Shown piece after piece: positions 2,480 through 58,956 of a DNA stretch of 64,000 nt. Under the pieces are notes generated by a model. The model was not told the origin of the DNA. It was given only the letters and a program-made list of their open reading frames with translations, and searched no databases. The position numbers and the translations under genes are program-made. The stretch's first letter is position 1; every line of letters starts with the position of its first letter. Source of the stretch: a virus; IMG/VR virus record IMGVR_UViG_3300009183_000080, positions 1-64,000 of that record, one strand, 5' to 3'.

Positions 2480-3271
2480 TTAATTTAATTCTTTTAAATC
2501 TTTATTAAAGATGTCCCATGCTTTTTGTAATCTTTCATTACCCATTAAATCTTTTATATACTCTTGTCTTTTTTCAAAACTGTAAATATTATCAATAGGA
2601 TTTTTTTTGCCAGTAAACCTATAACTGTCTAAAGTACAGTAATCAAAACTAATAATTTCAAGAAACTCTCCTTCTTTCCATTTTCTTGGTGTTCTCCAAT
2701 GTACTTGATTTACCGCAGCAAATAACGCTGCGTCATTAGTTTTTAAACTAATTGTTTCATAATTATAAGGAGTTGATTCTATTACTAAATCCCAATCAAT
2801 ATTTCCGCCTATCTGTATATTAAATGTAACTAAGTTTTCATCTCCATCAATGTGGGGCGGAAGCCAAGGTTCTTGTTTGCCATTTCCATGTCTTAAATCA
2901 TAATCAATATAGGTATAATGGCACAATTTAACTTCATCGGCATATACCTCTTTTACATAAGAATCCATAACATCTATTATATCTTTTGGACATTCAAACT
3001 CTGTTAATAGTCTTGACATATGAACAACTTTTTTAGGAGCAAATCTATTCATAGGAATAACATATTCTTCCTGATCTCCAGGAACCCTGACATAATCTTC
3101 TGATTCTAAATATTTCATACAAGAGTTTATTTCATCTCTTAGTCTTTGTAATTGATCTTGAGTAAATGGGTTGGAAATATACATTGGCAAAGGTTTTTTA
3201 TATTTTTCAAAACCAGTCAAATATTTCCACATTTCTGCTGTTTCTTTAACTTCAACGTTATTGTTATCCAT
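2480..3271 (-). CDS. 2-oxoglutarate/Fe(II)-dependent oxygenase-like protein
   Basis: The 263-residue protein has the metal triad of cupin-fold 2OG/Fe(II) dioxygenases: H140 and D142 in PPHIDGD, and H191 in QVHWRTPRKW, with a nearby Arg that could hold 2-oxoglutarate. The surrounding strands (NLVTFNIQIGG and FLEIISFDY) fit the double-stranded beta-helix. Such enzymes hydroxylate proteins, nucleic acids or small molecules; the substrate here is unknown. I chose the second in-frame ATG because a TATAAT box ends exactly 6 nt before it. The ATG six codons upstream would lie before the -10 box, so a transcript from this promoter would not contain it. Four oxygenase-like genes occur in this window. 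Confidence 0.7.
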   Translation of the reverse strand: MDNNNVEVKETAEMWKYLTGFEKYKKPLPMYISNPFTQDQLQRLRDEINSCMKYLESEDYVRVPGDQEEYVIPMNRFAPKKVVHMSRLLTEFECPKDIIDVMDSYVKEVYADEVKLCHYTYIDYDLRHGNGKQEPWLPPHIDGDENLVTFNIQIGGNIDWDLVIESTPYNYETISLKTNDAALFAAVNQVHWRTPRKWKEGEFLEIISFDYCTLDSYRFTGKKNPIDNIYSFEKRQEYIKDLMGNERLQKAWDIFNKDLKELN

Positions 3272-3277
3272 AACTAT

Positions 3278-3285
3278 ATTATACA
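3278..3285 (-). promoter_or_regulatory. -10 box for a leaderless oxygenase transcript
   Basis: The minus strand reads TGTATAAT followed by ATAGTT and then ATG. The 6-nt gap would place the transcription start at about the A of the start codon. The box overlaps the last codons and TAA stop of the upstream nuclease-like gene. It belongs to the recurring promoter pattern of this genome. Confidence 0.6.
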
Positions 3286-3563
3286 CCATCTGTTAGTTGT
3301 TCAAGTATTGCTAATTCAGTTATTGCAAGTCTAACCTTGTTTGTACCCTCGCCAATAACAACAATTATGGCTGGATCATTATTATTTTTAATGGCATCTG
3401 TAACGGCTTTAGCCCAAACTTTTTGATTAAGAGTAAAAGATTTTCCAACTTCTTTAAAATCTACTGTAAAATTTTTCCATGTTGCGTCGCCCTTGTGAGT
3501 GTTTCTACCACTATTCTTGTGCTGTTTTGCACCAAGCCTTTTTGATTCTGATCTCTCACTCAT
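3279..3563 (-). CDS. Small PD-(D/E)XK nuclease-like protein (possible Hjc/Hjr-type)
   Basis: This protein has about 94 residues. It contains KGDATWKNFTVDFKE, in which an Asp, a strand and a D-x-K triad mimic the PD-(D/E)XK active site of archaeal Hjc-type junction resolvases. The later LNQKVWAKAVTDA and IIVVIGEG segments fit the next helix and strand. The N-terminus is basic. I prefer the second ATG because the AAGGA ribosome-binding site sits 8 nt before it but only 2 nt before the first ATG at 3569. It overlaps the upstream zinc protein. A RuvC-like resolvase is also present, so its role may be different or redundant. Confidence 0.5.
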   Translation of the reverse strand: MSERSESKRLGAKQHKNSGRNTHKGDATWKNFTVDFKEVGKSFTLNQKVWAKAVTDAIKNNNDPAIIVVIGEGTNKVRLAITELAILEQLTDGV

Positions 3564-8004: not shown

Positions 8005-8661
8005 CTACCAATCTGTGTTGGTTGATGAAGTGGTTGACGGTGAGTCAAAGCCTAGATAAAAGGCTTCTTGCTCTGCATAAGGAACTTTGCGAAGTGCAAG
8101 TTCTAGTTGAAATGGCTCAATACCAGTCCAGTCAAATGGCTCTTTATCTGGTGCTGCTGGAATCATTGTGTAATTTGTTTCAGTACCCTGACCATTACGC
8201 TTCATCTTCCATACAACATTTGAGATACTACCAGTCTCAAGTGCATACTCACGAATAGTATTAAAAGATGATTGCTTGCTAATTCCCATAGACCAAATGG
8301 CCACATATGGTTTTTCAATTCCATCATCAACTAATACGTTACAGTAAAAGCGGAGACGACCACGCCATCCAGCCTTTGGGTCTTTACGGTGCATTTCTTC
8401 TGCCCAGTCACGACCTTCTGTGTCCATAGTATCTACTGCTTTGCGCTTGTAATCTTTTGGATTTACGTGCTCTTTGACAACTAGAGAAAGTCCACGAGAT
8501 GCATTATAATTTGCAGAGTCTTCGTCTAGTTCTTCAATAAAGCGAATCTTTACTGATTGTCCATCAGCAAGTTTAAGCCATCTTACCTTTGGTGAGTTTT
8601 CATCGTATTTTGGTTTGTCGAGCAGGGCGTTGATGTTTTTTAGTCCCTTTACTACGCTCAT
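8005..8661 (-). CDS. Single-stranded DNA-binding protein (phage type)
   Basis: The 218-residue protein begins MSVVKGLKNINALLDKPKY and has an OB-fold-like centre (KIRFIEELDE, RGRLRFYCNVLVDDG, YVAIWSMGISKQS) and a Ser/Thr-rich acidic tail ending in NTDW. That layout is typical of phage ssDNA-binding proteins, whose tails recruit partners. It lies directly upstream of the DnaE gene with a 1-nt gap. Codon use is visibly richer in C-ending codons than its neighbours, which fits high expression. AAAGGAGAATAATATG gives a strong ribosome-binding site. Family assignment is by overall layout, so moderate certainty. Confidence 0.7.
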   Translation of the reverse strand: MSVVKGLKNINALLDKPKYDENSPKVRWLKLADGQSVKIRFIEELDEDSANYNASRGLSLVVKEHVNPKDYKRKAVDTMDTEGRDWAEEMHRKDPKAGWRGRLRFYCNVLVDDGIEKPYVAIWSMGISKQSSFNTIREYALETGSISNVVWKMKRNGQGTETNYTMIPAAPDKEPFDWTGIEPFQLELALRKVPYAEQEAFYLGFDSPSTTSSTNTDW

Positions 8662-8675
8662 ATTATTCTCCTTTT

Positions 8676-10139
8676 TTATGTTGTTATTTTAAAATCATCA
8701 TACTGCTCTGCAGCACTATTGATTTTTTCTACTATTTTATTATACTCTTCCAATTCATTTTTGTCAAATGAATCTTTAGAAACTTTAAAACTATTTCCAG
8801 CATATAAAGATATCCAACTATACAACTGCCATGAAGGTGGTTGCATTAAATAAGAAAAATCTTCTTTGTTTGTTTTCATATCTTCTATAAATCTTTTTAT
8901 ATTATGATATTCGTATTCTGGCATTGGGTGTTTTAATAGAAACTCAGACCAAAAATTAGTATTGTTTTTATTTGTAATATAGTGCATGTATAGATAAGTT
9001 GTAATTGCCTGTCCATACCTTTCATTTAAATTATTAAAATGATCTATTTCTGTATTAGTAATAGTATTATTAATATATTTATAGAAATATTTATCTAAAA
9101 ATAAATATAAATGATTAATCATTCCCGATATTGCAGTGGCTTCCATTGGTTCAAAAAATGATGTAGCCAGTCCTATCCCTAAACAATTATTTATTAATAT
9201 TTTTTTTGCATAACCTGGAGTAAAATTAAAAGTTTTTATAATTTCTAAATCTTTTCCAAAAAATTCATATGCTTCTTTTATTGCATCATCTTCATTAATG
9301 TACTTATTGTTATAAACATATCCACAACCATATCTATTTTGTAGTGCAACTTTCCATGCCCAACCATAATCCATTGCAATTGCTTGTGTATATGGAACTT
9401 CTTTGCCATCTAAAGGAAGTTTGCAGGCAATTGCTGATGTTGCTGGAAGAAAATTAGATGTGTCAATCCACTCAACATTATAAACCTTATCTAAAAATAA
9501 TCTAGAAAATCCAGATGCATCAATTAAAAAATCTAGATTAATGCTTGTTTCATTATCTAATAGTAATTCCACAATGTCGTCATTACTATTTGTTTTAGTG
9601 TCAACAATAATAGCATCAATAATTTCTATATTTTTTTTAACTACTTCATTTTCTAAAAAATCTCCAAGCAATTTTGCATCTAAATGCAATGAATATTCTT
9701 TTTTACTATTAATTGAATGAGTTTTATTTTTATAAGATATTTGTGCATTTAAGTTAATAGAGTCTAAATTGCCATGCTCTTGCATTGCTATATTACAAAG
9801 TTTAAAGATGTTGTCATTATTGTAAAAAGTATTATCATCAAAAAAATTGTTAAATCCATGAAACCATGATTTGTTTTCTTTATTCCATCCAGAAAAAACA
9901 ACACCATTCTTAATGGTTGCATTTGTATACTTAATTACATCTTCAACATTAATGTTAAGATCTTTAAAAACTTTATGTATGTTTGTTGTTAGTCCTTCTC
10001 CAGGTCCTAGAACGCCTATTTGTTTACTTCGCACCATTGTTATTTTTAATTTAGGATATCTTTTATTTAACAGAAGTGCACTCAAACAACCAGCAGTTCC
10101 TCCACCAACAACAACAACGTTTTTAATATCTCTGATCAT
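8676..10139 (-). CDS. Flavin-dependent (tryptophan-type) halogenase
   Basis: The 487-residue protein has the FAD-binding GGGTAG at 12-17 and the flavin loop GPGEGLTTNIH at 45-55. K77 lies in ATIKNGVVFSGW, at the position of the catalytic lysine (K79) of PrnA/RebH. It also has a YGWAWKVALQNR block matching the halogenase WxWxIP motif (about 257-270) and FFEPMEATAISG with the conserved Glu (about 327-337). Such enzymes use FADH2, O2 and halide to make hypohalous acid that halogenates aromatic substrates. The first Trp of the WxWxIP motif is kept, but the IP is VA. The start is the ATG overlapping the AhpD-like stop by 17 nt; the frame is open further upstream but lacks the fold. A flavin reductase was not seen. 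Confidence 0.88.
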   Translation of the reverse strand: MIRDIKNVVVVGGGTAGCLSALLLNKRYPKLKITMVRSKQIGVLGPGEGLTTNIHKVFKDLNINVEDVIKYTNATIKNGVVFSGWNKENKSWFHGFNNFFDDNTFYNNDNIFKLCNIAMQEHGNLDSINLNAQISYKNKTHSINSKKEYSLHLDAKLLGDFLENEVVKKNIEIIDAIIVDTKTNSNDDIVELLLDNETSINLDFLIDASGFSRLFLDKVYNVEWIDTSNFLPATSAIACKLPLDGKEVPYTQAIAMDYGWAWKVALQNRYGCGYVYNNKYINEDDAIKEAYEFFGKDLEIIKTFNFTPGYAKKILINNCLGIGLATSFFEPMEATAISGMINHLYLFLDKYFYKYINNTITNTEIDHFNNLNERYGQAITTYLYMHYITNKNNTNFWSEFLLKHPMPEYEYHNIKRFIEDMKTNKEDFSYLMQPPSWQLYSWISLYAGNSFKVSKDSFDKNELEEYNKIVEKINSAAEQYDDFKITT

Positions 10140-10647
10140 AACCAACTTTATTGATCTGTTCTGCAGAAGGAATCCATGTTTCAGAATTTTCTTGAACACC
10201 ATGACCTTCAACAATTCTATTAAAGAAATTAAAGGCAGAGCAAACTGCAACAGCATCTTTAACTTGTTCTTGTGTAAATCCAGCCTCATAACATTCATCA
10301 TATAATTTCTTAGTCATACTTGCTGGATGCTTAGTTAACTGTTCTACTAAATTAAAAATTGTAGTCAATCTATTTGGAGTTGATTGAATTCCCCCATCTA
10401 AAATCTCAATCTCAGCATTTATTGATTCTGCAAAAACACGGTGCGATCCATAACAAAATCTACATCCATTTAAGTATGATGTATATGCTGCAATAATTTC
10501 TCTATCTTGTGGAGACAATGACGAAGCCTCTCGCAATACTTCTTGTGCAAATGAAAGCATCATCATATATCTTTTTTGATTTTCCATAAAAACATCAATA
10601 ATTGTTGAATCTTCCTTAATTGAATCGAATACATTTTTTACACTCAT
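10123..10647 (-). CDS. AhpD-like / carboxymuconolactone decarboxylase family protein
   Basis: This 174-residue all-helical protein carries the AhpD-type redox site: E50 in DREIIAAYTSYLN, followed by CRFCYGSH with C62, C65 and H69. Proteins with this CxxC-H site act as alkylhydroperoxidases or thiol peroxidase partners and can detoxify peroxides. It overlaps the start of the halogenase gene by 17 nt, so both are made from one message. A plausible inference is that it handles peroxide or reactive halogen by-products of the halogenase, or recycles a thiol. A GAGGT ribosome-binding site precedes the ATG at the end of the primase gene. Confidence 0.8.
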   Translation of the reverse strand: MSVKNVFDSIKEDSTIIDVFMENQKRYMMMLSFAQEVLREASSLSPQDREIIAAYTSYLNGCRFCYGSHRVFAESINAEIEILDGGIQSTPNRLTTIFNLVEQLTKHPASMTKKLYDECYEAGFTQEQVKDAVAVCSAFNFFNRIVEGHGVQENSETWIPSAEQINKVGYDQRY

Positions 10648-10649
10648 GA

Positions 10650-11594
10650 CTACCTCAGCATTTCTAGTATAGAATTGTCAATTGAACTACTTAACTTAAT
10701 TATATCAGAATCCTGCATATCTCCAATATCTTTATACTTAGTATCTAGTGTTATTATCGATACCCTTGACTTTAACTTATCAATCATTTTTTTAGACATT
10801 GACTTTCCAGCCTCATCATTATCTGCTATTAAATATATCTCATTGAAATATTTTTCTAATAGTTCTACTTGGCTTTTTGAAATTGTTGCTCCAAGCGTAG
10901 CCACTGCTGGCATACCAACTTGATCTAATCTTATGGCATCAAAAGATGACTCTACAACATAAACCCTATCATTTGCTTTTACCCTATGCAGATTAAACAA
11001 AGTTTTACTTTTTGGAAGTCCTGGAGTATTTTTAAAATCTTTTCCTTCAAGACTTCTGCCAACAAAACCAATTACCATTCCTTCTGGAGAGTGAACTGGA
11101 ATTGTAACCATATCCTGCTTCTCAGAATATCCTAAGTTAAACTTACTAACTGATAACTTAGTTACAAGTCTTCCATCAAAGTATCTCATTGCTCTTGGAG
11201 ATTCAAGTGCTTGTGAGTTCAGTCTCTTAATAATAACTTCGTCATACTGTACAAATGTTGGTGGGGTATATAGTTGTTTTGCTACTATTTGAGTAATATC
11301 AGACTCTTGCTCTTTGCTTTTTATATACCGCAAACTTTCAAAATATGATCTGTTGCTCATTTTCATTACTATTTCTTGCAAAGTAGCAGTCTGTTGACAC
11401 CCAAAACAAAAGAATAATCCACTTTCTTTTGACACTTCTCCAGCAGGGGTTCTATTGTTATTATGATATGGACAAAAAATAATATAGTCAGAATCTACTT
11501 CTGATTGTATTGTGACTCCGGAACCGATGAGAACTCTTTTGACTTGATCTTCTGTGTATATATCGGTCTGTACCCGTCTGCTGCGATCATCCAT
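10650..11594 (-). CDS. DNA primase (DnaG-type, zinc finger plus TOPRIM)
   Basis: The 314-residue protein has an N-terminal CHC2 zinc finger (C41 and H44 in FCPYH; C63 and C66 in FCFGC). The TOPRIM catalytic motifs follow: VVESSFDAIRL with its Glu (about 212) and LIADNDEAGKS with the DxD pair (about 255-265). It lacks the C-terminal helicase-binding domain of cellular DnaG, and at 314 residues is short, as in many phages. It would make RNA primers for the DnaE polymerase. The start lies 100 nt inside the upstream small gene. The next gene downstream is AhpD-like, so primase and redox genes share an operon. Confidence 0.9.
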   Translation of the reverse strand: MDDRSRRVQTDIYTEDQVKRVLIGSGVTIQSEVDSDYIIFCPYHNNNRTPAGEVSKESGLFFCFGCQQTATLQEIVMKMSNRSYFESLRYIKSKEQESDITQIVAKQLYTPPTFVQYDEVIIKRLNSQALESPRAMRYFDGRLVTKLSVSKFNLGYSEKQDMVTIPVHSPEGMVIGFVGRSLEGKDFKNTPGLPKSKTLFNLHRVKANDRVYVVESSFDAIRLDQVGMPAVATLGATISKSQVELLEKYFNEIYLIADNDEAGKSMSKKMIDKLKSRVSIITLDTKYKDIGDMQDSDIIKLSSSIDNSILEMLR

Positions 11595-46676: not shown

Positions 46677-46685
46677 ATTTTATCA
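46677..46685 (-). promoter_or_regulatory. Extended -10 promoter (TGATAAAAT)
   Basis: TGATAAAAT lies 9 nt before the ATG of the LamG-like gene and overlaps the end of the oxygenase gene. No Shine-Dalgarno is present, so a leaderless or very short leader is likely. Confidence 0.4.
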
Positions 46686-47213
46686 TACAATGCGGGTAAA
46701 CCATCTTGGTAATGTGTATCTATTAGTTCCTGTGACAGTTTTTACTCCGTGAACAAAATCTGGTGTGTCTGGAAAACATACTAAATCTCCTGCCTCTGGT
46801 TTAATTATAATTTCTAACTCTGGAAAATAAATCTCACCGCCAGAATAATTATCATTTATGTATATAAGGCAAGCAATATCATTTGTTCTAGTGACATCAA
46901 AATGCTCATGCATAGATGCACCAACTTCAAATCTAGCAATATGATTTAAATTTGAAACATAATTTACAAATGGTCCAGGATAATTTTCTAATACAAAATC
47001 ATAAACTTTTTTTTGATACTCATTTAAAATTAAAAATTCTTCAGAAACATCTGATTTTGCAATACCAGAATGAAATGCTTTAAATTCTTTTTTTGTATTT
47101 CCAAATTCTGTAAACTCTGAATCAACGCTTAATGCAAAATTATATAGCATACTAGAAACTTCTTTTGGCATAAAAGTTTTTATATGCTTTATTTTAGATA
47201 AACGATCTTCCAT
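46683..47213 (-). CDS. 2-oxoglutarate/Fe(II) oxygenase (prolyl-4-hydroxylase-like)
   Basis: The 176-residue protein is a compact 2OG-Fe(II) dioxygenase. It has H104-x-D106 in MHEHFDVTRT, distal H155 in DFVHGVKTV, and R165 in TNRYTLPRWF for 2-oxoglutarate binding. The core strand CLIYINDNYSGGEIYFPEL is typical of the P4Hc family. Such proteins hydroxylate proteins or nucleobases. Its start abuts the stop of the ribonucleotide reductase gene upstream. No substrate is visible; a neighbouring structural protein is possible. Confidence 0.85.
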   Translation of the reverse strand: MEDRLSKIKHIKTFMPKEVSSMLYNFALSVDSEFTEFGNTKKEFKAFHSGIAKSDVSEEFLILNEYQKKVYDFVLENYPGPFVNYVSNLNHIARFEVGASMHEHFDVTRTNDIACLIYINDNYSGGEIYFPELEIIIKPEAGDLVCFPDTPDFVHGVKTVTGTNRYTLPRWFTRIV

Positions 47214-49243
47214 TAAGAAACCTTAATTTCGCAGTAGTCTGTTGTGCAATACATTTCTCCAACGGAATCAAGATTCTCAATACCGTCATAAATTGCATCA
47301 AAGTTAATGTGAGCAACCTTTCCGACATAAGCATCATACTCTTCTTTAGTAATTTGTGTGTATGGCTGTTGTGGATAAGTATGATTTCCCATTGGAAGGA
47401 ATGAAACTGCTTTTAATTGACCTTCGTACATGTGAAGTGCTGGAGCAATATGTTTTGTTTCTGTTTCTTTGTCAAAAGATAAAGTCACAGATACCCCATT
47501 GTCCGACCAATACTTCTGTGTTGTTGCAGCAAGACCAATTTTTTCAAACAAACTTACATCCTTCTCTGATCTTGGATGTCCAGAAGATACTGGGAAATAT
47601 ACTACTGTAGTATTTGCTGATACTAGATCGTCTTCAATTTTATACCCTGCTGCTTTAAATAAATGTAGCATTGGATCTGTATTTCCAAAACGAATTGCAC
47701 GTAAGAAGTATTCTCCACCAACAGACCAGTGAACTCCTGGAGATGCTCCAGAAAGTAATGAAACTGATCCTGAAGGTTTTACTGTAGTTACACGAATTGA
47801 TTCACGAACACATAGCCATTCTGAATACTGCTTGTCGTAGTGGCGAATCTTATTGTATCCTTCGTCCATCCACTCTCTGGTTGTTGGCATTCCATTGATA
47901 TCAGTAAATGATGCAATACCAGTTAATGATGTTCCAATTCTACGGTTTCTTTGCATAATACCGTTTGTAATTTGCCAATGTGTTGGAAGTAAAGTTACAG
48001 TTTTTCCATAAAGATATGCAAATTTCAAGGTACGCATAAAGTCTTCTTTGTCTGTATGACGATTTAAATGAACCTCAACTAATGTACATAGTTCATAAGA
48101 CTCTAGTGGTTGTTCTGCACAAGGATTGAAACCCATAACACGATAGTCTTTTCCATCTGCTGGATCTGCTAGTCTTCCATAATTTCTTGCAACATCAAGC
48201 CAAATAAAACCAGGCTCTCCATTATCTGCAATTAAATCCACATAATCTTCGTAGTGAGTTCCAACCTCAGCAGCAATAGAGTTATTGCTCATCCATGCCC
48301 ATCCTGGATTTTCTGAATCAAATGAGTTACGATCTGGAAATAGTTCTGAGTTTTTAAGATTAATAAAGTCTTTATCATTTGGATTTCCAAGAGCAAGTGT
48401 TGCAGATCTACGAACATTGCCAGAAACAACACAGGTTCCAATAAGGTTTACAATATCTACAATTGCTCTAGAGTCTAACTTCTCTCCTGCCCTAGAACCA
48501 ATTACTTTACGGATCATTGTATGTAGATCCATTAATGGTTTTGGACCGCTTGCAACCCCACCAAAGCCCTTAATTGGGGCTCCTAGAGGACGGATCAAGT
48601 CATAGTTAAATTCTTGAATTGATTGATTTGCTCTCAAAAATGAATTAAGCAAAAGTCTAACAGATTCTACCCATCCTTCACGAGTATCTGGGATTTCATA
48701 TACAGATGCTGGTTCTGTTGGTGCATAGATAGATAGATCTTTTTCTTGACCTACCGTGTCAAATCCAACTCCAATGCCAAGCATTAATGCGTCCATAACC
48801 CAAGCAAATAAGGATCCTGGATCGTTACGATCAATGTCTCTTGTTGAAACCATCGCACAATTTTGAAGAGATGCAGAGTTTTTTCTTTCCATTGTCATTG
48901 GGGTACCAAAAGCCCAAAGACCTCTTCCTGGTGGAGTCCATTTAAGATTAAACATGCGGTCATATGCTTCTTGTGCTGATTTCTGTGCTTTATAGTCATT
49001 CCAAGGCAGTCTGTTTTCTTTCGCATGATTCTTTTGCACTGAGTACATGCCTTCAATTACTCTTTTACAAACCTCATACCATCTTTCCTTAGTACCATCG
49101 TCTTTTACACGGGAATAAGTACGAACAAACGTAATCTCTCCTAATGAGTTTCCACCTGCATCTTTGAACCCAAATGGTGGCTCAATTTCAATATATTTGT
49201 TTACAAAATCATCAGAAAAACGAAAAGAAAATACGTCAGACAT
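47213..49243 (-). CDS. nrdJ: Class II (adenosylcobalamin-dependent) ribonucleoside-triphosphate reductase
   Basis: The 676-residue protein matches monomeric class II ribonucleotide reductases in length and motifs. It has SLQNCAMVSTRD with the N-terminal active Cys, GNVRRSATLALG, the catalytic FNPCAEQPLESYELC (about 368-382) and a C-terminal CTTDYC redox pair. It converts NTPs to dNTPs with coenzyme B12, independent of oxygen, to feed replication. AGGGG precedes the ATG, with a TGCTATAAT box upstream. No subunit partner is needed for class II. A B12-dependent enzyme implies the host supplies or salvages cobalamin. Confidence 0.93.
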   Translation of the reverse strand: MSDVFSFRFSDDFVNKYIEIEPPFGFKDAGGNSLGEITFVRTYSRVKDDGTKERWYEVCKRVIEGMYSVQKNHAKENRLPWNDYKAQKSAQEAYDRMFNLKWTPPGRGLWAFGTPMTMERKNSASLQNCAMVSTRDIDRNDPGSLFAWVMDALMLGIGVGFDTVGQEKDLSIYAPTEPASVYEIPDTREGWVESVRLLLNSFLRANQSIQEFNYDLIRPLGAPIKGFGGVASGPKPLMDLHTMIRKVIGSRAGEKLDSRAIVDIVNLIGTCVVSGNVRRSATLALGNPNDKDFINLKNSELFPDRNSFDSENPGWAWMSNNSIAAEVGTHYEDYVDLIADNGEPGFIWLDVARNYGRLADPADGKDYRVMGFNPCAEQPLESYELCTLVEVHLNRHTDKEDFMRTLKFAYLYGKTVTLLPTHWQITNGIMQRNRRIGTSLTGIASFTDINGMPTTREWMDEGYNKIRHYDKQYSEWLCVRESIRVTTVKPSGSVSLLSGASPGVHWSVGGEYFLRAIRFGNTDPMLHLFKAAGYKIEDDLVSANTTVVYFPVSSGHPRSEKDVSLFEKIGLAATTQKYWSDNGVSVTLSFDKETETKHIAPALHMYEGQLKAVSFLPMGNHTYPQQPYTQITKEEYDAYVGKVAHINFDAIYDGIENLDSVGEMYCTTDYCEIKVS

Positions 49244-50011: not shown

Positions 50012-50728
50012 TCATTTATATGTTTTTCGATTCCAATACCATTTTTTATATCCACCAGTAAATCTACTTCTAACTTTACTTGTTTGTTCGTTTACTATTT
50101 TTATATCAAAATTTTTATTAAATTCTGCTACCCAATTGTCTCTTTTAAATGGAAAAACTTGTACCAATGGGGTACCCTGTTTAATAGTTCCCTTAAATCC
50201 TTTATCTATAAAAAAAGAAAATAAACCATCTGACATATAACCATCTGTATCAATAATTGCAGCAACGGCATGCATTGGCATATAGTCTTGATGTTGTGGT
50301 TCCATAAATAAAGAACTATATCCTTTTTCAGTTTCTACAACCCATCCAATATTAACTCTAAATATATGGTCTGCAAAAAAATCATAATTAAATGGATAGT
50401 GTGAAACTTGTTCTTTTGAATGAGACCCAATTAATGGGGTTTTTAATTTTTTATAATTGTCTGAAATTTTAAAAATTTTGTTATCTCCAGTTGTATCAAT
50501 TTCTATATCAACCGGACATAACAACAAATATCCTGTAGTAATAATGTCAAAAATTGCCTGACAATTTTTTATTGTTATTCCATCAATAAGGCTATTTTCT
50601 TGCACAATGTAACTTGGTTGATCCTTATACCATTGTGGTAAATTTTTTGACATAGGAATTGGTTGAGGAAAAGCATCAATCATTTTTGGATATCTATAAT
50701 TAAATGTTATTTTTTTTTCTGTTTCCAT
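50012..50728 (-). CDS. Conserved phage protein of unknown function (cyanophage-like family)
   Basis: The 238-residue protein has IPMSKNLPQWYKDQPSYIV near the start, IKNCQAIFDIITTGYLLLCP and VDIEID, then ETEKGYSSLFMEPQHQ, and a C-terminal IKQGTPLVQVFPFKRDNW. I recognise this set of motifs from conserved proteins of marine tailed phages whose function is unknown. It is not an oxygenase by motif. A TGATATAAT box lies 5 nt before the ATG. It lies directly upstream of an oxygenase-like gene. Confidence 0.6.
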   Translation of the reverse strand: METEKKITFNYRYPKMIDAFPQPIPMSKNLPQWYKDQPSYIVQENSLIDGITIKNCQAIFDIITTGYLLLCPVDIEIDTTGDNKIFKISDNYKKLKTPLIGSHSKEQVSHYPFNYDFFADHIFRVNIGWVVETEKGYSSLFMEPQHQDYMPMHAVAAIIDTDGYMSDGLFSFFIDKGFKGTIKQGTPLVQVFPFKRDNWVAEFNKNFDIKIVNEQTSKVRSRFTGGYKKWYWNRKTYK

Positions 50729-50733
50729 AACTA

Positions 50734-50742
50734 ATTATATCA
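50734..50742 (-). promoter_or_regulatory. Extended -10 promoter (TGATATAAT), near-leaderless
   Basis: TGATATAAT then TAGTT then ATG: a 5-nt spacer with no ribosome-binding site. It overlaps the stop of the upstream Hint protein gene. Confidence 0.55.
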
Positions 50743-52032
50743 GTAATCAGGACGGTCAAAGACTAACATGTTTTCAGTAAAAAAGTTGTCATATGGCTCA
50801 CAGTTAATAGATATTTTTTCCATTTCTACATTCACTTCTTCTACTGTTGTAACTGGTAGCCATGCTTGATGTTCATAATTATATACCTCGTAAGTTGTAT
50901 CAATATTAGGTGCCTGTATAAACTTAGTAATTCCGTCTTTTTTAACTAAAAGATAATGAGCAGGAGTATAAAGGTTTCCATTTATATGAATAAAGTTTTC
51001 AGCAGTTCCAGGGGTAACCGACACAACTGTTGTTTCTACAACAAGATCATTGTCTAATTGTATATCAGAAGAACTCCATTCTGTCCAATTTGTTGTTGCA
51101 TCTCCTCCCAAATTCATTGCATATACTGTATCTCCAACAACTAAATCTTCAATAAATTTTACTCCAGTTGGGGTCAAAACTTTTGTTTGGACTGCAAGTG
51201 AATCTCCCCAGACAGAAAATCCAAAAGAGTATGGCCAAAAACCAAATGGTGTAAAACCAAATACTCCACCAAACGACGGTGCAAAACCAAATACTCCACC
51301 AAATGGTGCAAAAGCAAACACTCCAAATGGTGCAAAACCAAATACTGCAAATGGTGCAAAACCAAATGGAGCAAAACTAAAACTTGTAAAACTTGCAGAT
51401 GCTGCAGATGTAGAAGAGTTGCCATTTGCATTTGTTGCATATACTGTATATGCCTGAGCCGTTCCAGCCTCTTGAGCAACGTTAGCAGAAAGGGTTGATC
51501 CTCCTACTGAACCTGTTTTGCTATCATTAGATGCCCAAGTATATCCTGTAATTGCACTTCCACCAGTTGCTGGTGCTACCCAAGTTACAATGTCTGTTGC
51601 TGTTTGTGAAACTGAAGTGATAGTTGGTGCTGCTGGAGTTGCTGGAACTGTTGTTACTGTTACTGAAGAAGAAGTTGTTCCACTTGCAGTTCCTGAAGCA
51701 TTTGTTCCCTGTACTGTAAATGTGTATGAAGTATTAGATGCTAATCCTTGAAAAGTATAGGAAGGAGTAGATGAGCCAGTATTAACTGTATAGGTTGAAG
51801 GAGTGGTAGTAATAGTATATCCAGTTGCTGCTGGAGATTCTGCTGGAAGTGTCCAAGTAAGGGATACTGATCCACCTGTGCCTGCTGCTGATGCTGCTGA
51901 AGTAGTATTAGCGGTAGCAAGATAAGGACGAGATGTTCCTACGTTTGTGCCACTTAAAGAAGTAACGTTATCTGGTTGCAAAAAGTTATCTTGTGCTGAA
52001 GACTTGATGCCTCTTTTTTTACTAACTGCCAT
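50740..52032 (-). CDS. Appendage protein: FN3 domains, FG-rich repeats and a C-terminal Hint-like domain
   Basis: This 430-residue protein has three parts. Residues about 35-215 are fibronectin type III-like modules (VSLTWTLPAESPAATGYTIT, then SNTSYTFTVQGTNASGT). Residues about 219-270 are a low-complexity run of FAPFG/FGFAPFGG-type repeats. Residues about 277-430 resemble a Hint (hedgehog/intein) domain: VQTKVLTPTGVKFIEDLVVG with DTVYA, then VVSVTPGTAENFIHINGNLY, TPAHYLLVKKDG, and a C-terminal FFTENMLVFDRPDY. A Ser lies where the usual Cys begins the Hint block, and the final HN of inteins is missing. Surface-exposed fibre role likely. Confidence 0.7.
   Translation of the reverse strand: MAVSKKRGIKSSAQDNFLQPDNVTSLSGTNVGTSRPYLATANTTSAASAAGTGGSVSLTWTLPAESPAATGYTITTTPSTYTVNTGSSTPSYTFQGLASNTSYTFTVQGTNASGTASGTTSSSVTVTTVPATPAAPTITSVSQTATDIVTWVAPATGGSAITGYTWASNDSKTGSVGGSTLSANVAQEAGTAQAYTVYATNANGNSSTSAASASFTSFSFAPFGFAPFAVFGFAPFGVFAFAPFGGVFGFAPSFGGVFGFTPFGFWPYSFGFSVWGDSLAVQTKVLTPTGVKFIEDLVVGDTVYAMNLGGDATTNWTEWSSSDIQLDNDLVVETTVVSVTPGTAENFIHINGNLYTPAHYLLVKKDGITKFIQAPNIDTTYEVYNYEHQAWLPVTTVEEVNVEMEKISINCEPYDNFFTENMLVFDRPDY
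51225..51380. repeat. Tandem repeat encoding FAPFG-type motifs
   Basis: Units of ggtgcaaaaccaaatactcc-like sequence recur about eight times and encode Phe/Gly/Pro repeats in the Hint-domain protein. The repeat is in frame with no stops. Confidence 0.75.
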
Positions 52033-52049
52033 TTTTACTCCTCTTTTCT

Positions 52050-52058
52050 ATTATATCA
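52050..52058 (-). promoter_or_regulatory. Extended -10 promoter (TGATATAAT) for the FN3-Hint gene
   Basis: TGATATAAT is followed by AGAAAAGAGGAG and ATG, so a short leader with a good ribosome-binding site. Confidence 0.55.
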
Positions 52059-52063
52059 AACTA

Positions 52064-54148
52064 CTATGCTGACAAATCTCCCATTACAACCCAAAGATTT
52101 GCTGCTCTCTTAAATAATGTCGCTGATGACCATTGTGCACGAAGTTTTAATCCAGGAGTTGCATTTACTGTTGTTGTTCCTGGTGTTACTGCTTCAATTG
52201 TCACAGCGCCAGTATTTGTTCGAAGAATGTCAATTGATGTTCCAATTGGAAAGTTAAAAGTAGCGTCTGTTGGAATTAAAACTTTGACTGCAGTTCCGCC
52301 TGTATGTGAAACTTCAATTAATGAGTCTCTTTCATTTGCTGCTGAAAGGGTGTATTCTGCTGTCTTCTGAATAATTGATGTCCGTGATGGAACACCTTCT
52401 TTTGTTTGTGTACCGTCGGTAAAAATAAATCCACCAGCAGTTGTACTAATAACTGAAGTTCCGTTTACTTTAAGATCTTTTCCTGAAGCAAGGTTGATAT
52501 GCTCGGAAGATGTCCAAGAATCTGTAGCATCTACCCAGTTAAAGGTTTTATCTGTTGCGCCTTTAAGTGTTATACCTCCGCCATCAGCAGTTGCATCTGA
52601 TGGAGTAGCAACATCACCAAGAACAATATTCTTATCATCAACAGAAAGTTCTGTTGAGTTGATAGTTGTGGTTGTTCCATTTACAATTAAGTTTCCAGAA
52701 AGTGTAAGGGCTGCTGCGTTTACCGTTCCAGTAAATGTTGGACTGGCAAGTGGTGACTTTGCATCTAACTGTGTTTGAATTGCTGAAGTGACTCCATCAA
52801 CATATCCAATTTCAGTAGAGGATACGGTTGAAGAGATACCAAGTTTGGTCCAGTCAATTGCTGCAGATGCGTTAATGTCAGCATTAACAATTGTTCCATC
52901 AAGAATTTTTGCAGAAGTAACTGCACCATCTGCTAAATCTCCAACAAGAATTGTTCCATCAAGAATCATTGCAGATGTAACAGTTCCTGAAGGAAGAGTT
53001 ACTGTTCCTGTAAATGTAGGAGAAGCAAGTGGTGCTTTTGCATCTAATTGAGTTTGAATGGCTGATGTTACTCCGTCAAGATATCCAATTTCAGTATTGT
53101 TAACACCTGCAACAACTGCTTGTTTATTATCTAATTGTGTTTGAATAGCAGAAGTTACTCCATCAAGATATCCAATTTCAGTGTTTGAAACGTTTGCAAC
53201 TATGGCTTGGTATGTATTAGATGCGGTTGTGGTATCTAGTTTTGCAGCAAGATCTGAAGTTAAACCTACAACTTTAGACTGTGCAATATTTGCTGTAGCA
53301 CTAATATCGTCATTAACAATAGTTCCATCAGCAATTTTTGCAGAAGTAACTGCACCATCTGCAATATCAGCAGTAGCAATTGTTCCATCTAGAATCATTG
53401 TAGAAGTAACAGTTCCTGAAGGAAGAGTTACTGTTCCTGTAAATGTAGGACTGTTTAATGGGGCCTTAAGCGCATCGGCAGTATCTACGTATACTTTTGA
53501 TGCGCCATCTGTATCTGCAGTAGGTACTGGCATATTAATAATTTTTGTAGCCAAGTTTAAATCAATATTTCCAGTCATTTGACCGCCTGCTTTTGATAGA
53601 CGTTCAGTAACATCTGAAACTAATGCTACTGTGCCTCCTGCGTTTGGAAAAAGAATTGCTCTATCTGCTGTAGGATCTATAACGCTAATTGTTGTTTCAT
53701 GTGCATCTGCTGTAGTGCCTTCAAAAACAATTCCTGTTGTAGCATTAATTGTTGTGCTGTTAATAGTAGTAGTTGTACCACTTACTGTTAAATCCCCTGA
53801 AATTGTGACAGCGCCAGTAGAGGAGTTGGCTAAAACAACTGTTCCTGATGCATCTGGAAGAGTGATGGTCCGATCTGCTGTAGGATCTGTTACTTCTAGG
53901 GTAGTTTCAAAAGCATTTGCTGTAGCACCTTCAAACTTAATGTTTGAACCAAATTGAGGGTTTACTGTGCTGTCTGAGTCAATAAAATAATCAAGGTTGA
54001 TCCAGTGGTTTGTGCCATCACCAATTTTAAACTTGTTGGTATCTGACTCGTAACCGATTTCTCCGGCTGCAAGGATTGGGCCGTTGCCACTGTTGGTTGA
54101 TATCCACTGGGCTGCAGTACCCCTTCTCTGTTGCATTCTTGTTGCCAT
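52064..54148 (-). CDS. Tail fibre protein, repetitive
   Basis: The 694-residue protein starts MATRMQQRRGTAAQWISTNS, with ILAAGEIGYESDTNKFKIGD. This N-terminal hyaluronidase/fibre module is common in phage tail fibres. The rest is repetitive: TFTGTVTLPSGTVTS, DGAVTSAKIADGTIVN and YLDGVTSAIQTQLD recur three or more times. A module with TINSTELSVDDKNIVLGD and KTFNWVDATDSWTSSEHINL is shared with a second fibre gene. AGGGGG precedes the ATG. It probably binds host surface glycans. Confidence 0.85.
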   Translation of the reverse strand: MATRMQQRRGTAAQWISTNSGNGPILAAGEIGYESDTNKFKIGDGTNHWINLDYFIDSDSTVNPQFGSNIKFEGATANAFETTLEVTDPTADRTITLPDASGTVVLANSSTGAVTISGDLTVSGTTTTINSTTINATTGIVFEGTTADAHETTISVIDPTADRAILFPNAGGTVALVSDVTERLSKAGGQMTGNIDLNLATKIINMPVPTADTDGASKVYVDTADALKAPLNSPTFTGTVTLPSGTVTSTMILDGTIATADIADGAVTSAKIADGTIVNDDISATANIAQSKVVGLTSDLAAKLDTTTASNTYQAIVANVSNTEIGYLDGVTSAIQTQLDNKQAVVAGVNNTEIGYLDGVTSAIQTQLDAKAPLASPTFTGTVTLPSGTVTSAMILDGTILVGDLADGAVTSAKILDGTIVNADINASAAIDWTKLGISSTVSSTEIGYVDGVTSAIQTQLDAKSPLASPTFTGTVNAAALTLSGNLIVNGTTTTINSTELSVDDKNIVLGDVATPSDATADGGGITLKGATDKTFNWVDATDSWTSSEHINLASGKDLKVNGTSVISTTAGGFIFTDGTQTKEGVPSRTSIIQKTAEYTLSAANERDSLIEVSHTGGTAVKVLIPTDATFNFPIGTSIDILRTNTGAVTIEAVTPGTTTVNATPGLKLRAQWSSATLFKRAANLWVVMGDLSA

Positions 54149-57832: not shown

Positions 57833-58372
57833 ATGACAACTAATAAGATAGTGATTGGTGTACTCGCAGCAGTAACTGGAATTGCAATATTTTCTAATTC
57901 TAGCGCTAATGCTGAAAATAATCTGAGTAGTACCGTGTTAAAAGAAGAAACAGCAACCGCTCAGGCGGTTTTTTTGGTTTCTAAGGAAAACAAATTAAAT
58001 AGTTATAAAAATGTTAGAAAACAACTAAGTCCAACACAACTAGTAGAACTTTTAGAATCAGTTGGTTTTGAAGGGTATGCACTAAAAGTTGCTTGGGCAA
58101 CAGTAATGAAAGAATCAATGGGAACCCCAACATCCTTTAATGGTAATCGTAGTACAGGAGATAATTCATATGGACTATTTCAAATCAATATGCTAGGATC
58201 AATGGGCGCAGATCGACGGGATAAGTTTAACCTTGATTCCAATGATGATCTATTCGATCCCGTTAAAAATGCACAGATTGGCTACCATATGAGTGATGGT
58301 GGTAAAGACTGGTCTGCCTGGAAGGGTATTACCTGGAAGACCAAAGAGTGGCTAGCAAGATATCCTGATTAA
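57833..58372 (+). CDS. Secreted lysozyme-like lytic transglycosylase
   Basis: This 179-residue protein is the only complete plus-strand gene. Residues 1-27 form a signal peptide with a hydrophobic core (IVIGVLAAVTGIAIF) and an ANA cleavage site. The mature part has a lysozyme/SLT-type domain: KVAWATVMKESMG with catalytic-type E94, then NRSTGDNSYGLFQINM (about 105-120), NAQIGYHMSDGGKDWSAWKG. It would cut peptidoglycan outside the membrane, for lysis or entry, or to alter the host wall. AAGGAGG precedes the ATG. It meets the minus-strand oxygenase gene tail to tail, sharing 4 nt (stops overlap). Confidence 0.8.
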   Translation: MTTNKIVIGVLAAVTGIAIFSNSSANAENNLSSTVLKEETATAQAVFLVSKENKLNSYKNVRKQLSPTQLVELLESVGFEGYALKVAWATVMKESMGTPTSFNGNRSTGDNSYGLFQINMLGSMGADRRDKFNLDSNDDLFDPVKNAQIGYHMSDGGKDWSAWKGITWKTKEWLARYPD

Positions 58373-58956
58373 TAAACAAAACTAACAATTGCATATCTAA
58401 CACCACCTGTTATTGGCAAAACTTTATGCTGATAAACATAACTTGATGGGAAAAGAAATAGTTGATTAGCCTTTGGCCTAATCGTTAAATTAAACTTGGA
58501 AAATTCTATTTCTCCTCCTTCGTAATCGTCATTGCAATAATAAATTAAAGACATCCTTCTTGGTGTTTCAATATGATCATCTAAATGAGTATTAAAATAT
58601 TGACCCTTTCTATATTTTAAAACTAGATAAGGTTCATGGGTTTTTGTTTCTAGATGAAACATTTCCTTGTAGTATTCTTCATATGGCGTGAACAAATTTT
58701 TTAACTTATTTGAAGTTTCAAGTAAAAATAAATCATTTTGATCTGATTCAAATGGAATGCTAATAGAAAAAACATTTCTTGTAGACAGGTCAATAACCTT
58801 TTCTCCATAAGAGTTGTGGGTTCCACCAAATCCCCAATTAAGATTTCTTTTTTTTGTTTCTAACTCTAACTCTTCTATAAAATTTTTTGAATCTAGGAAA
58901 ACATCATCATAAATAAAAAATCCTGGAATTGGTTCTGTATAATTAGATAATGTCAT
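58369..58956 (-). CDS. 2-oxoglutarate/Fe(II) oxygenase (P4H-like)
   Basis: The 195-residue protein has H124-x-D126 in FNTHLDDHIE, H177 in VYQHKVLPI and R187 in GGVRYAIVSF, the full 2OG-Fe(II) set. The core RMSLIYYCNDDYEGGEIEFS closely resembles the corresponding strand of the 176-residue oxygenase downstream of the reductase. It lies among appendage genes, so hydroxylation of a fibre protein is a testable guess, particularly as a collagen-like protein is encoded nearby. Its stop overlaps that of the convergent lysozyme-like gene. Confidence 0.85.
   Translation of the reverse strand: MTLSNYTEPIPGFFIYDDVFLDSKNFIEELELETKKRNLNWGFGGTHNSYGEKVIDLSTRNVFSISIPFESDQNDLFLLETSNKLKNLFTPYEEYYKEMFHLETKTHEPYLVLKYRKGQYFNTHLDDHIETPRRMSLIYYCNDDYEGGEIEFSKFNLTIRPKANQLFLFPSSYVYQHKVLPITGGVRYAIVSFVY

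What the first reader, a model, noticed from the sequence alone, without database searches (positions are those of the whole stretch)
8676..10647. Halogenase paired with an AhpD-like protein inside the replication block
The flavin-dependent halogenase keeps GGGTAG, the catalytic-type Lys (K77), WAWKVALQNR and FFEPMEATAIS. It is co-transcribed and overlapping with a CxxC-H AhpD-like gene. A viral halogenase from a cyanophage (VirX1, an iodinase) is known, but coupling to an AhpD partner between primase and ssDNA-binding protein genes is unusual. It might modify a host metabolite, a nucleotide or a protein, with AhpD handling peroxide or a thiol step.
Basis: partly seen in the sequence, partly recalled or inferred. 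Interest (0 to 1): 0.8.

Follow-up and report, generated by a model that had tools for sequence, protein, structure and literature searches.

The report
Swappable halogenase module in freshwater phages
A freshwater virus of actinobacteria carries an enzyme predicted to attach chlorine, bromine or iodine to an organic molecule, and comparison with hundreds of related viruses shows that it belongs to a repeatedly reshuffled set of three gene families, one of them an undescribed membrane protein, which gives a concrete lead to what viral halogenases do.

Summary
On the minus strand a flavin-dependent halogenase (8676-10139, 487 aa) overlaps by 17 nt an AhpD-like CxxC protein (10123-10647), between primase and SSB. 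Catalytic Lys (K77 = PrnA K79) and Glu (E333 = PrnA E346) are kept. Both genes are under purifying selection. The Trp-binding segment of true tryptophan halogenases is missing, so the substrate is probably not free tryptophan.

The replication setting says nothing about substrate. In 190 related loci the primase-SSB junction is empty in 120. The other 70 hold only three gene families: AhpD, halogenase, and an unnamed ~95-aa three-helix membrane protein ("mem"), in seven combinations. Halogenase alleles are 27-48% identical between phages with near-identical flanks, and their partner switches between AhpD and mem. Seeded on mem alone, a halogenase lies within 3 kb in 51 of 54 loci outside this site. 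mem and AhpD match no INPHARED phage; mem matches no Pfam or PHROG family.

Best reading: a working halogenase for a small or peptidyl aromatic substrate, in a modular system whose accessories handle redox chemistry (AhpD) and probably a membrane step (mem). Partnership is well supported; chemistry, substrate and benefit are inferred.

The parts
8676..10139 (-). flavin-dependent halogenase gene, 487 aa (start ATG at 10139, not 10301)
   Evidence: PF04820 2.9e-88; phrog_2928 1.8e-94; AF2 model pLDDT 92.5, best PDB fits Xcc4156, PyrH, BrvH, VirX1 at TM 0.83-0.87; dN/dS 0.10-0.24
9909..9911 (-). codon of catalytic-type Lys K77 (aligns with PrnA K79)
   Evidence: profile alignment to PrnA; K in 51 of 52 relatives
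9345..9362 (-). WxWxIP-type motif, here WAWKVA (Pro to Ala; L005 keeps Pro)
9141..9143 (-). codon of active-site Glu E333 (aligns with PrnA E346)
   Evidence: E in 50 of 52 relatives
10123..10647 (-). AhpD-like (carboxymuconolactone decarboxylase fold) gene, 174 aa
   Evidence: PF02627 2.9e-8; TIGR01926 peroxidase-related 8e-19, 68 bits, below its 81.8-bit cut-off; PDB AhpD relatives
10441..10500 (-). AhpD motif E50-x11-C62-x2-C65-x3-H69
   Evidence: invariant in 26 of 26 rows of the AhpD alignment
10123..10139 (-). 17-nt overlap of AhpD 3' end and halogenase 5' end; no ribosome-binding site seen before the halogenase ATG, so translational coupling is likely (inference)
8662..10649 (.). cargo segment between primase and SSB; about 30 bp in most relatives
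8005..8661 (-). flank: single-strand DNA-binding protein gene
   Evidence: phrog_9721
10650..11594 (-). flank: DNA primase gene
   Evidence: phrog_47

Best explanation
The gene pair is one configuration of a modular phage halogenation system. The halogenase takes FADH2 (from a host flavin reductase), O2 and a halide, makes hypohalous acid at FAD, passes it to K77 and halogenates an electron-rich aromatic group positioned by E333; the substrate is probably a small metabolite or peptide rather than free tryptophan. The AhpD-like CxxC/His protein is a dedicated redox accessory, most likely removing peroxide or hypohalous acid that leaks from the uncoupled flavin cycle or reducing an oxidised partner. 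In sister phages the partner is instead, or also, a three-helix membrane protein, which suggests that the substrate, product or enzyme has a membrane step. The cassette is gained, lost and re-alleled at fixed sites, as expected if each allele suits a different host or substrate. Shown: gene identity, catalytic residues, purifying selection, recurrent three-family association, partner switching, allele swapping. Inferred: halogenase activity, substrate, roles of AhpD and mem, benefit to the phage.
For: Active-site residues and fold. dN/dS well under 1. All 70 occupied primase-SSB junctions of 190 hold only AhpD, halogenase and mem. mem-seeded sample: halogenase within 150 bp on the same strand in 46 of 54 loci outside the junction, within 3 kb in 51. 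Records with mem alone at the junction have a halogenase elsewhere in 5 of 5, against 1 of 34 records with an empty junction (Fisher p 1e-5). AhpD-seeded sample: halogenase within 2 kb in 9 of 14 sequence groups (grouped by hand), against 0 of 120 empty-junction loci. AhpD beside a convergent halogenase in another phage architecture (L193, L208, L212). Partner switches with strong support: L129 (mem) with L196 (AhpD), 99; window (AhpD) with L023 and L123 (mem), 100. No Trp4 segment in any of 52 sequences (motif from PMC8269204).
Against: No biochemical data. One AhpD-paired allele (L014/L015) has R for K77 and T for E333, so AhpD can accompany an enzyme that may not halogenate. The window's WxWxIP motif is WAWKVA. 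Some AhpD-bearing records show no halogenase (G027-G032), though these are 22-42 kb fragments. AhpD scores below NCBIfam family cut-offs. Counts are not corrected for shared ancestry, and the 80 mem loci were the best-scoring hits.
Confidence: 0.55

Rival explanations
1. The enzyme halogenates (or otherwise oxidises) a phage structural protein, for instance aromatic residues of tail fibres, and the alleles match the fibre type.
For: In DSL-LC01 and other actinophages the halogenase follows collagen-type fibre genes or lies near tail and glycosyltransferase genes. Peptide-level relatives exist (MibH among the structural matches; weak QhpG and LodB profile hits). The fibre region of the window is closer to G001, which shares its allele, than to G016 (50015-54148).
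Against: Here the gene sits in the replication block. The tail-tip genes of the window are closer to G016, which has a different allele (33%), than to G001, which has the same allele. Only three genomes compared.
Confidence: 0.15
2. It is a flavin monooxygenase or oxidase descended from halogenases that no longer halogenates, with AhpD clearing its peroxide.
For: Pro to Ala in WxWxIP; the L014/L015 allele lacks Lys and Glu; weak matches to tryptophylquinone-forming QhpG and LodB.
Against: K77 and E333 are conserved in at least 50 of 52 sequences down to ~23-30% identity; sister allele L005 keeps the Pro.
Confidence: 0.12
3. It modifies nucleotides or phage DNA.
For: Position between primase and SSB.
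Against: The junction is empty in 120 of 190 relatives; the same genes occur beside terminase, tail, WhiB or RuvC-like genes in other phages. No known base-modification gene was noticed nearby, though this was not searched for systematically.
Confidence: 0.04
4. Generic hitch-hiking: halogenase, AhpD and mem are unrelated cargo that happen to share an insertion hot spot.
For: Many presence/absence and allele differences at one site; AhpD and mem can occur there without a halogenase.
Against: No other cargo in any of 70 occupied junctions; the same pairs recur at other sites and in other gene orders; unlinked co-occurrence of mem and halogenase in 5 of 5 records.
Confidence: 0.08

Closest known systems
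VirX1 of cyanophage Syn10 (PDB 6QGM)
   Same: phage-encoded flavin-dependent halogenase with K79 (PMC8407142); same fold, TM 0.83; natural substrate unknown as far as I know
   Different: ~21% identity; outside the clade of the window's relatives (branch 95); neighbour in Syn10 is another halogenase-like gene, no AhpD annotated nearby
BrvH, Xcc4156 and group C flavin-dependent halogenases (PMC8269204)
   Same: FAD and halide sites kept, Trp4 motif absent; among the best structural matches
   Different: cellular enzymes; 23-25% identity in the structural alignments; no AhpD or mem partner known to me
PrnA, RebH, PyrH, Thal (true tryptophan halogenases)
   Same: fold, K79 and E346 equivalents
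   Different: Trp4 tryptophan-binding segment absent in the phage family
Pelagiphage HTVC008M and cyanophage P-SSM2 'tryptophan halogenase'
   Same: annotated phage tryptophan halogenases at about 32% identity
   Different: HTVC008M copy lies next to a 2OG-Fe(II) oxygenase and terminase; no AhpD of this family found in any INPHARED phage
AhpD / peroxidase-related TIGR01926 (PDB 6K40 and others)
   Same: CMD fold, E...CxxCxxxH catalytic set
   Different: below family cut-offs; F/Y in place of the histidine between the two cysteines of M. tuberculosis AhpD (from memory); phage clade with EGHG motif

Membership tests
Flavin-dependent halogenase (PF04820) | GxGxxG FAD-binding motif | tested here: met
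   GGGTAG; G12, G14 and G17 in 52 of 52
Flavin-dependent halogenase (PF04820) | catalytic lysine (PrnA K79) | tested here: met
   K77 by profile alignment; 51 of 52 relatives
Flavin-dependent halogenase (PF04820) | active-site glutamate (PrnA E346) | tested here: met
   E333; 50 of 52
Flavin-dependent halogenase (PF04820) | WxWxIP motif | tested here: inconclusive
   window WAWKVA, two Trp kept, Pro to Ala; Pro in 50 of 52 relatives and in sister L005. The motif or variants of it are absent in some characterised halogenases (PMC8407142)
Flavin-dependent halogenase (PF04820) | halide-dependent carbon-halogen bond formation | not testable with these tools
   needs purified enzyme
Tryptophan halogenase, groups A/B (PrnA, RebH, PyrH) | Trp4 tryptophan-binding motif (PrnA 443-461) | tested here: not met
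   PrnA Y443-E450 is an insert relative to the phage profile; motif absent from all 52; motif definition from PMC8269204
VirX1 clade | groups with VirX1 in a tree | tested here: not met
   branch 95 separates Syn10 proteins from the window's relatives; quick tree
AhpD alkylhydroperoxidase | E-x11-C-x2-C-x3-H catalytic set in CMD fold | tested here: met
AhpD alkylhydroperoxidase | passes curated family cut-off (TIGR01926, TIGR00778) | tested here: not met
   68.1 of 81.8 bits; 22.6 of 27.8 bits; so called AhpD-like, not AhpD
AhpD alkylhydroperoxidase | peroxidase or disulfide-reductase activity | not testable with these tools
   needs purified protein
mem as SemiSWEET/PQ-loop/MPC half-transporter | three-helix-bundle fold match | tested here: inconclusive
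   recur among the best named Foldseek hits in both libraries but at E 2-9; VIA Z 4.3-6.9, below the level that is informative for helical bundles; no Pfam or PDB sequence match and no PHROG match under E 0.1

The most novel reading that the evidence does not exclude
Freshwater actinophages (and many other uncultured phages) run a dedicated halogenation system in which a halogenase, a thiol-redox protein and a three-helix membrane carrier together make and move a halogenated small molecule during infection, with alleles exchanged as host- or rival-specific chemistry.
Probability: 0.2. Interest if true: 0.88.

Novelty: new variant of a known kind. Interest (0 to 1): 0.62.

Why it matters
Viral halogenases have been known since VirX1, and 20 of 153 surveyed cyanophage sequences carry one (PMC10452541), but no natural substrate or partner is known to me. 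A near-constant partner family (mem), an alternative redox partner (AhpD), and natural sets of near-identical phages with, without, or with a different halogenase at one site turn the question of what they do into something that can be tested by co-purification, transport assay and comparative metabolomics. mem is a widespread phage membrane family (at least 583 contig matches) without a Pfam or PHROG entry.

Tried and rejected
Nucleotide or DNA modification because of the replication setting: rejected, since the junction is a cargo site. AhpD as the obligatory partner: rejected, since mem replaces it in sister lineages. Tryptophan halogenase in the strict sense: rejected (Trp4 absent). Halogenase alleles tracking the tail tip: not so in three genomes; fibre genes undecided. 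Cellular origin of AhpD: one GTDB pattern scan gave only six distant hits (29-35%, Planctomycetota and Acidobacteria), which says little because the patterns were narrow. mem as a mitochondrial-pyruvate-carrier or SemiSWEET relative: only a weak fold match, and hmmsearch of its profile against PDB gave nothing at E up to 10. Literature on halogenase plus AhpD or alkylhydroperoxidase: no paper; the VirX1 paper itself is not held. The 541-aa start of the halogenase: rejected. Not run: complex prediction, cellular search for mem, gene-expression data.

Full report
What is there. The window is the first 64 kb of a 71,432-base IMG/VR virus record. Portal and DnaE proteins are closest, at 46% and 54% identity, to Streptomyces phages; Streptomyces phage Circinus (Stanwilliamsviridae) shows a similar order helicase, primase, SSB, DnaE, RecA, Cas4-like, RuvC, with no gene between primase and SSB. 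The host is therefore probably a freshwater actinobacterium (inference; WhiB-like genes in related loci, named by eye, agree). The halogenase starts at ATG 10139 and is 487 aa; the AhpD-like gene ends at 10123, so they overlap by 17 nt.

Is it a working halogenase? A profile of 52 phage relatives aligned to PrnA puts K77 on PrnA K79 and E333 on E346. K77 is kept in 51 of 52 and E333 in 50 of 52 sequences that are mostly 27-47% identical to the window. The AlphaFold2 model (pLDDT 92.5) matches Xcc4156, PyrH, BrvH, PrnA, MibH and VirX1 at TM 0.81-0.87. Nei-Gojobori dN/dS is 0.10-0.24 for the halogenase, 0.05-0.17 for AhpD and up to 0.04 for SSB (the one near-identical AhpD pair gives 0). The WxWxIP motif reads WAWKVA in most of the window's clade, but WAWKVP in L005. 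A published comparison of Trp halogenases (PMC8269204) defines a Trp4 segment (PrnA 443-461) absent from group C enzymes; in the phage profile PrnA residues Y443-E450 are an insert and the motif is absent from all 52. So it is a halogenase family member but not a tryptophan halogenase by that criterion.

Is the AhpD pairing real? The AhpD-like protein has no match in 50,697 phage records but 41 relatives in IMG/VR. Its E50, C62, C65, H69 and EGHG motif are invariant in 26 of 26 aligned rows. It scores below NCBIfam cut-offs, so AhpD-like is the proper name. In AhpD-seeded loci 9 of 14 sequence groups (my grouping) have a halogenase within 2 kb, including phages where AhpD follows a WhiB-like gene and the halogenase is convergent (L193, L208, L212).

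The junction is a dedicated cargo site. Loci fetched by SSB or primase, together with the AhpD- and halogenase-seeded ones, give 190 junctions with both flanks, with some contigs represented by more than one locus: 120 empty (28-88 bp between the matches) and 70 occupied, all by AhpD, halogenase and a ~95-aa membrane protein ('mem') in seven combinations: AhpD+halo 46, mem 11, mem+halo 5, AhpD 4, mem+AhpD 2, halo+mem 1, AhpD+mem 1. At 95% flank identity there are 93 clusters; four hold both occupied and empty junctions, among them the window's own (27 loci occupied, 6 empty). Close neighbours with near-identical flanks and AhpD 86-87% identical carry halogenases only 27-35% identical to the window's (L012-L015). 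In a three-genome comparison the halogenase is the only replication gene around this site that diverges in this way.

mem. It lies directly beside the halogenase in many loci fetched by halogenase alone. Fetched by mem alone (best 80 of at least 583 relatives), 46 of 54 loci outside the junction have a halogenase within 150 bp on the same strand, 5 more within 3 kb; the 3 without are cut short on at least one side by the contig end. Records with mem alone at the junction have a halogenase elsewhere in 5 of 5 (in G023 directly after the RuvC-like gene), against 1 of 34 empty-junction records. mem has no Pfam, PHROG, PDB-sequence or INPHARED match. Its model (pLDDT 74) is an N-terminal helix plus a three-helix bundle; SemiSWEET, PQ-loop and mitochondrial pyruvate carrier chains recur among the best matches in two libraries, but at E above 1 and Z 4-7, so this is a lead only.

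Partner switching. In the halogenase tree (quick search) AhpD-linked rows need at least five changes on well-supported branches. L129 (mem) is sister to L196 (AhpD), support 99; the window (AhpD) joins L023 and L123 (mem), support 100. The 113-kb relative G001 has both an AhpD-linked and a mem-linked halogenase. AhpD and mem are therefore alternative or additional accessories of one system rather than strict substitutes.

Mechanism. From established flavin-halogenase chemistry (PMC8407142, and general knowledge): FADH2 + O2 gives flavin hydroperoxide, halide attacks it, hypohalous acid is guided by the lysine to the aromatic substrate, and Glu activates the substrate. No flavin reductase was identified beside the pair, so FADH2 probably comes from the host. 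Uncoupled turnover releases peroxide, which an AhpD-like CxxC/His protein could remove; this and the membrane step are inferred. The small-metabolite or peptide substrate is favoured over DNA (cargo site, varied contexts) and over tail-tip proteins (allele does not track them in three genomes), but fibre proteins are not excluded. One allele (L014/L015) has lost Lys and Glu, so not every occupant need be a halogenase.

Limits. Counts are not corrected for shared ancestry; IMG/VR records are fragments; no expression or biochemical data; the literature library lacks most subscription journals.

Noticed in passing
L122 2695-2985, L305 11827-12138, L304 7342-7698 and at least 583 viral contig matches: Undescribed ~95-aa three-helix phage membrane protein, almost always beside a halogenase; invariant Y-W-N-E-K-PG-W-S-K-PT-FN-W residues.
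   Followed up: partly
L298 4998-11004; also L297, L288, L273: Two to four consecutive, mutually divergent halogenase paralogues in one phage locus.
   Followed up: no
L014 5777-7318 / L015 6509-: Halogenase-family allele with Lys to Arg and Glu to Thr at the catalytic positions, beside an AhpD 86% identical to the window's.
   Followed up: partly
L261 4517-4726, L295 3985-4740, L223 3366-4007, L295 2829-3425, L308 6751-8500: Halogenase loci of other actinophages also carry what look like a DUF2061-like small membrane protein, an APS-kinase-like protein and sulfotransferases (named by eye).
   Followed up: no
L280 2015-2851; L304 8618-10042: Luciferase-like flavin monooxygenase genes near phage halogenases (13 loci; named by eye), another flavin-dependent family.
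   Followed up: no
window 50012-50728 (-): phrog_7084 protein of unknown function beside fibre genes; relatives sit next to AhpD or halogenase in other phages (L193, L208, L197, L308; relatives named by eye).
   Followed up: partly
window 50740-52032 (-): Fibronectin type III protein whose C-terminus looks like a Hint/intein-type domain (VQTKVLTPTG...LYTPAHYLLVK), by eye only.
   Followed up: no
window 46683-47213, 58369-58956 and 2480-3289 (all -): 2OG-Fe(II) oxygenase genes (two by Pfam, the third by weak PHROG match) that are absent or under 40% identical in close relatives.
   Followed up: no
window 47213-49243 (-): Class II (B12-dependent type) ribonucleotide reductase, 98-99% identical in two relatives.
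   Followed up: no
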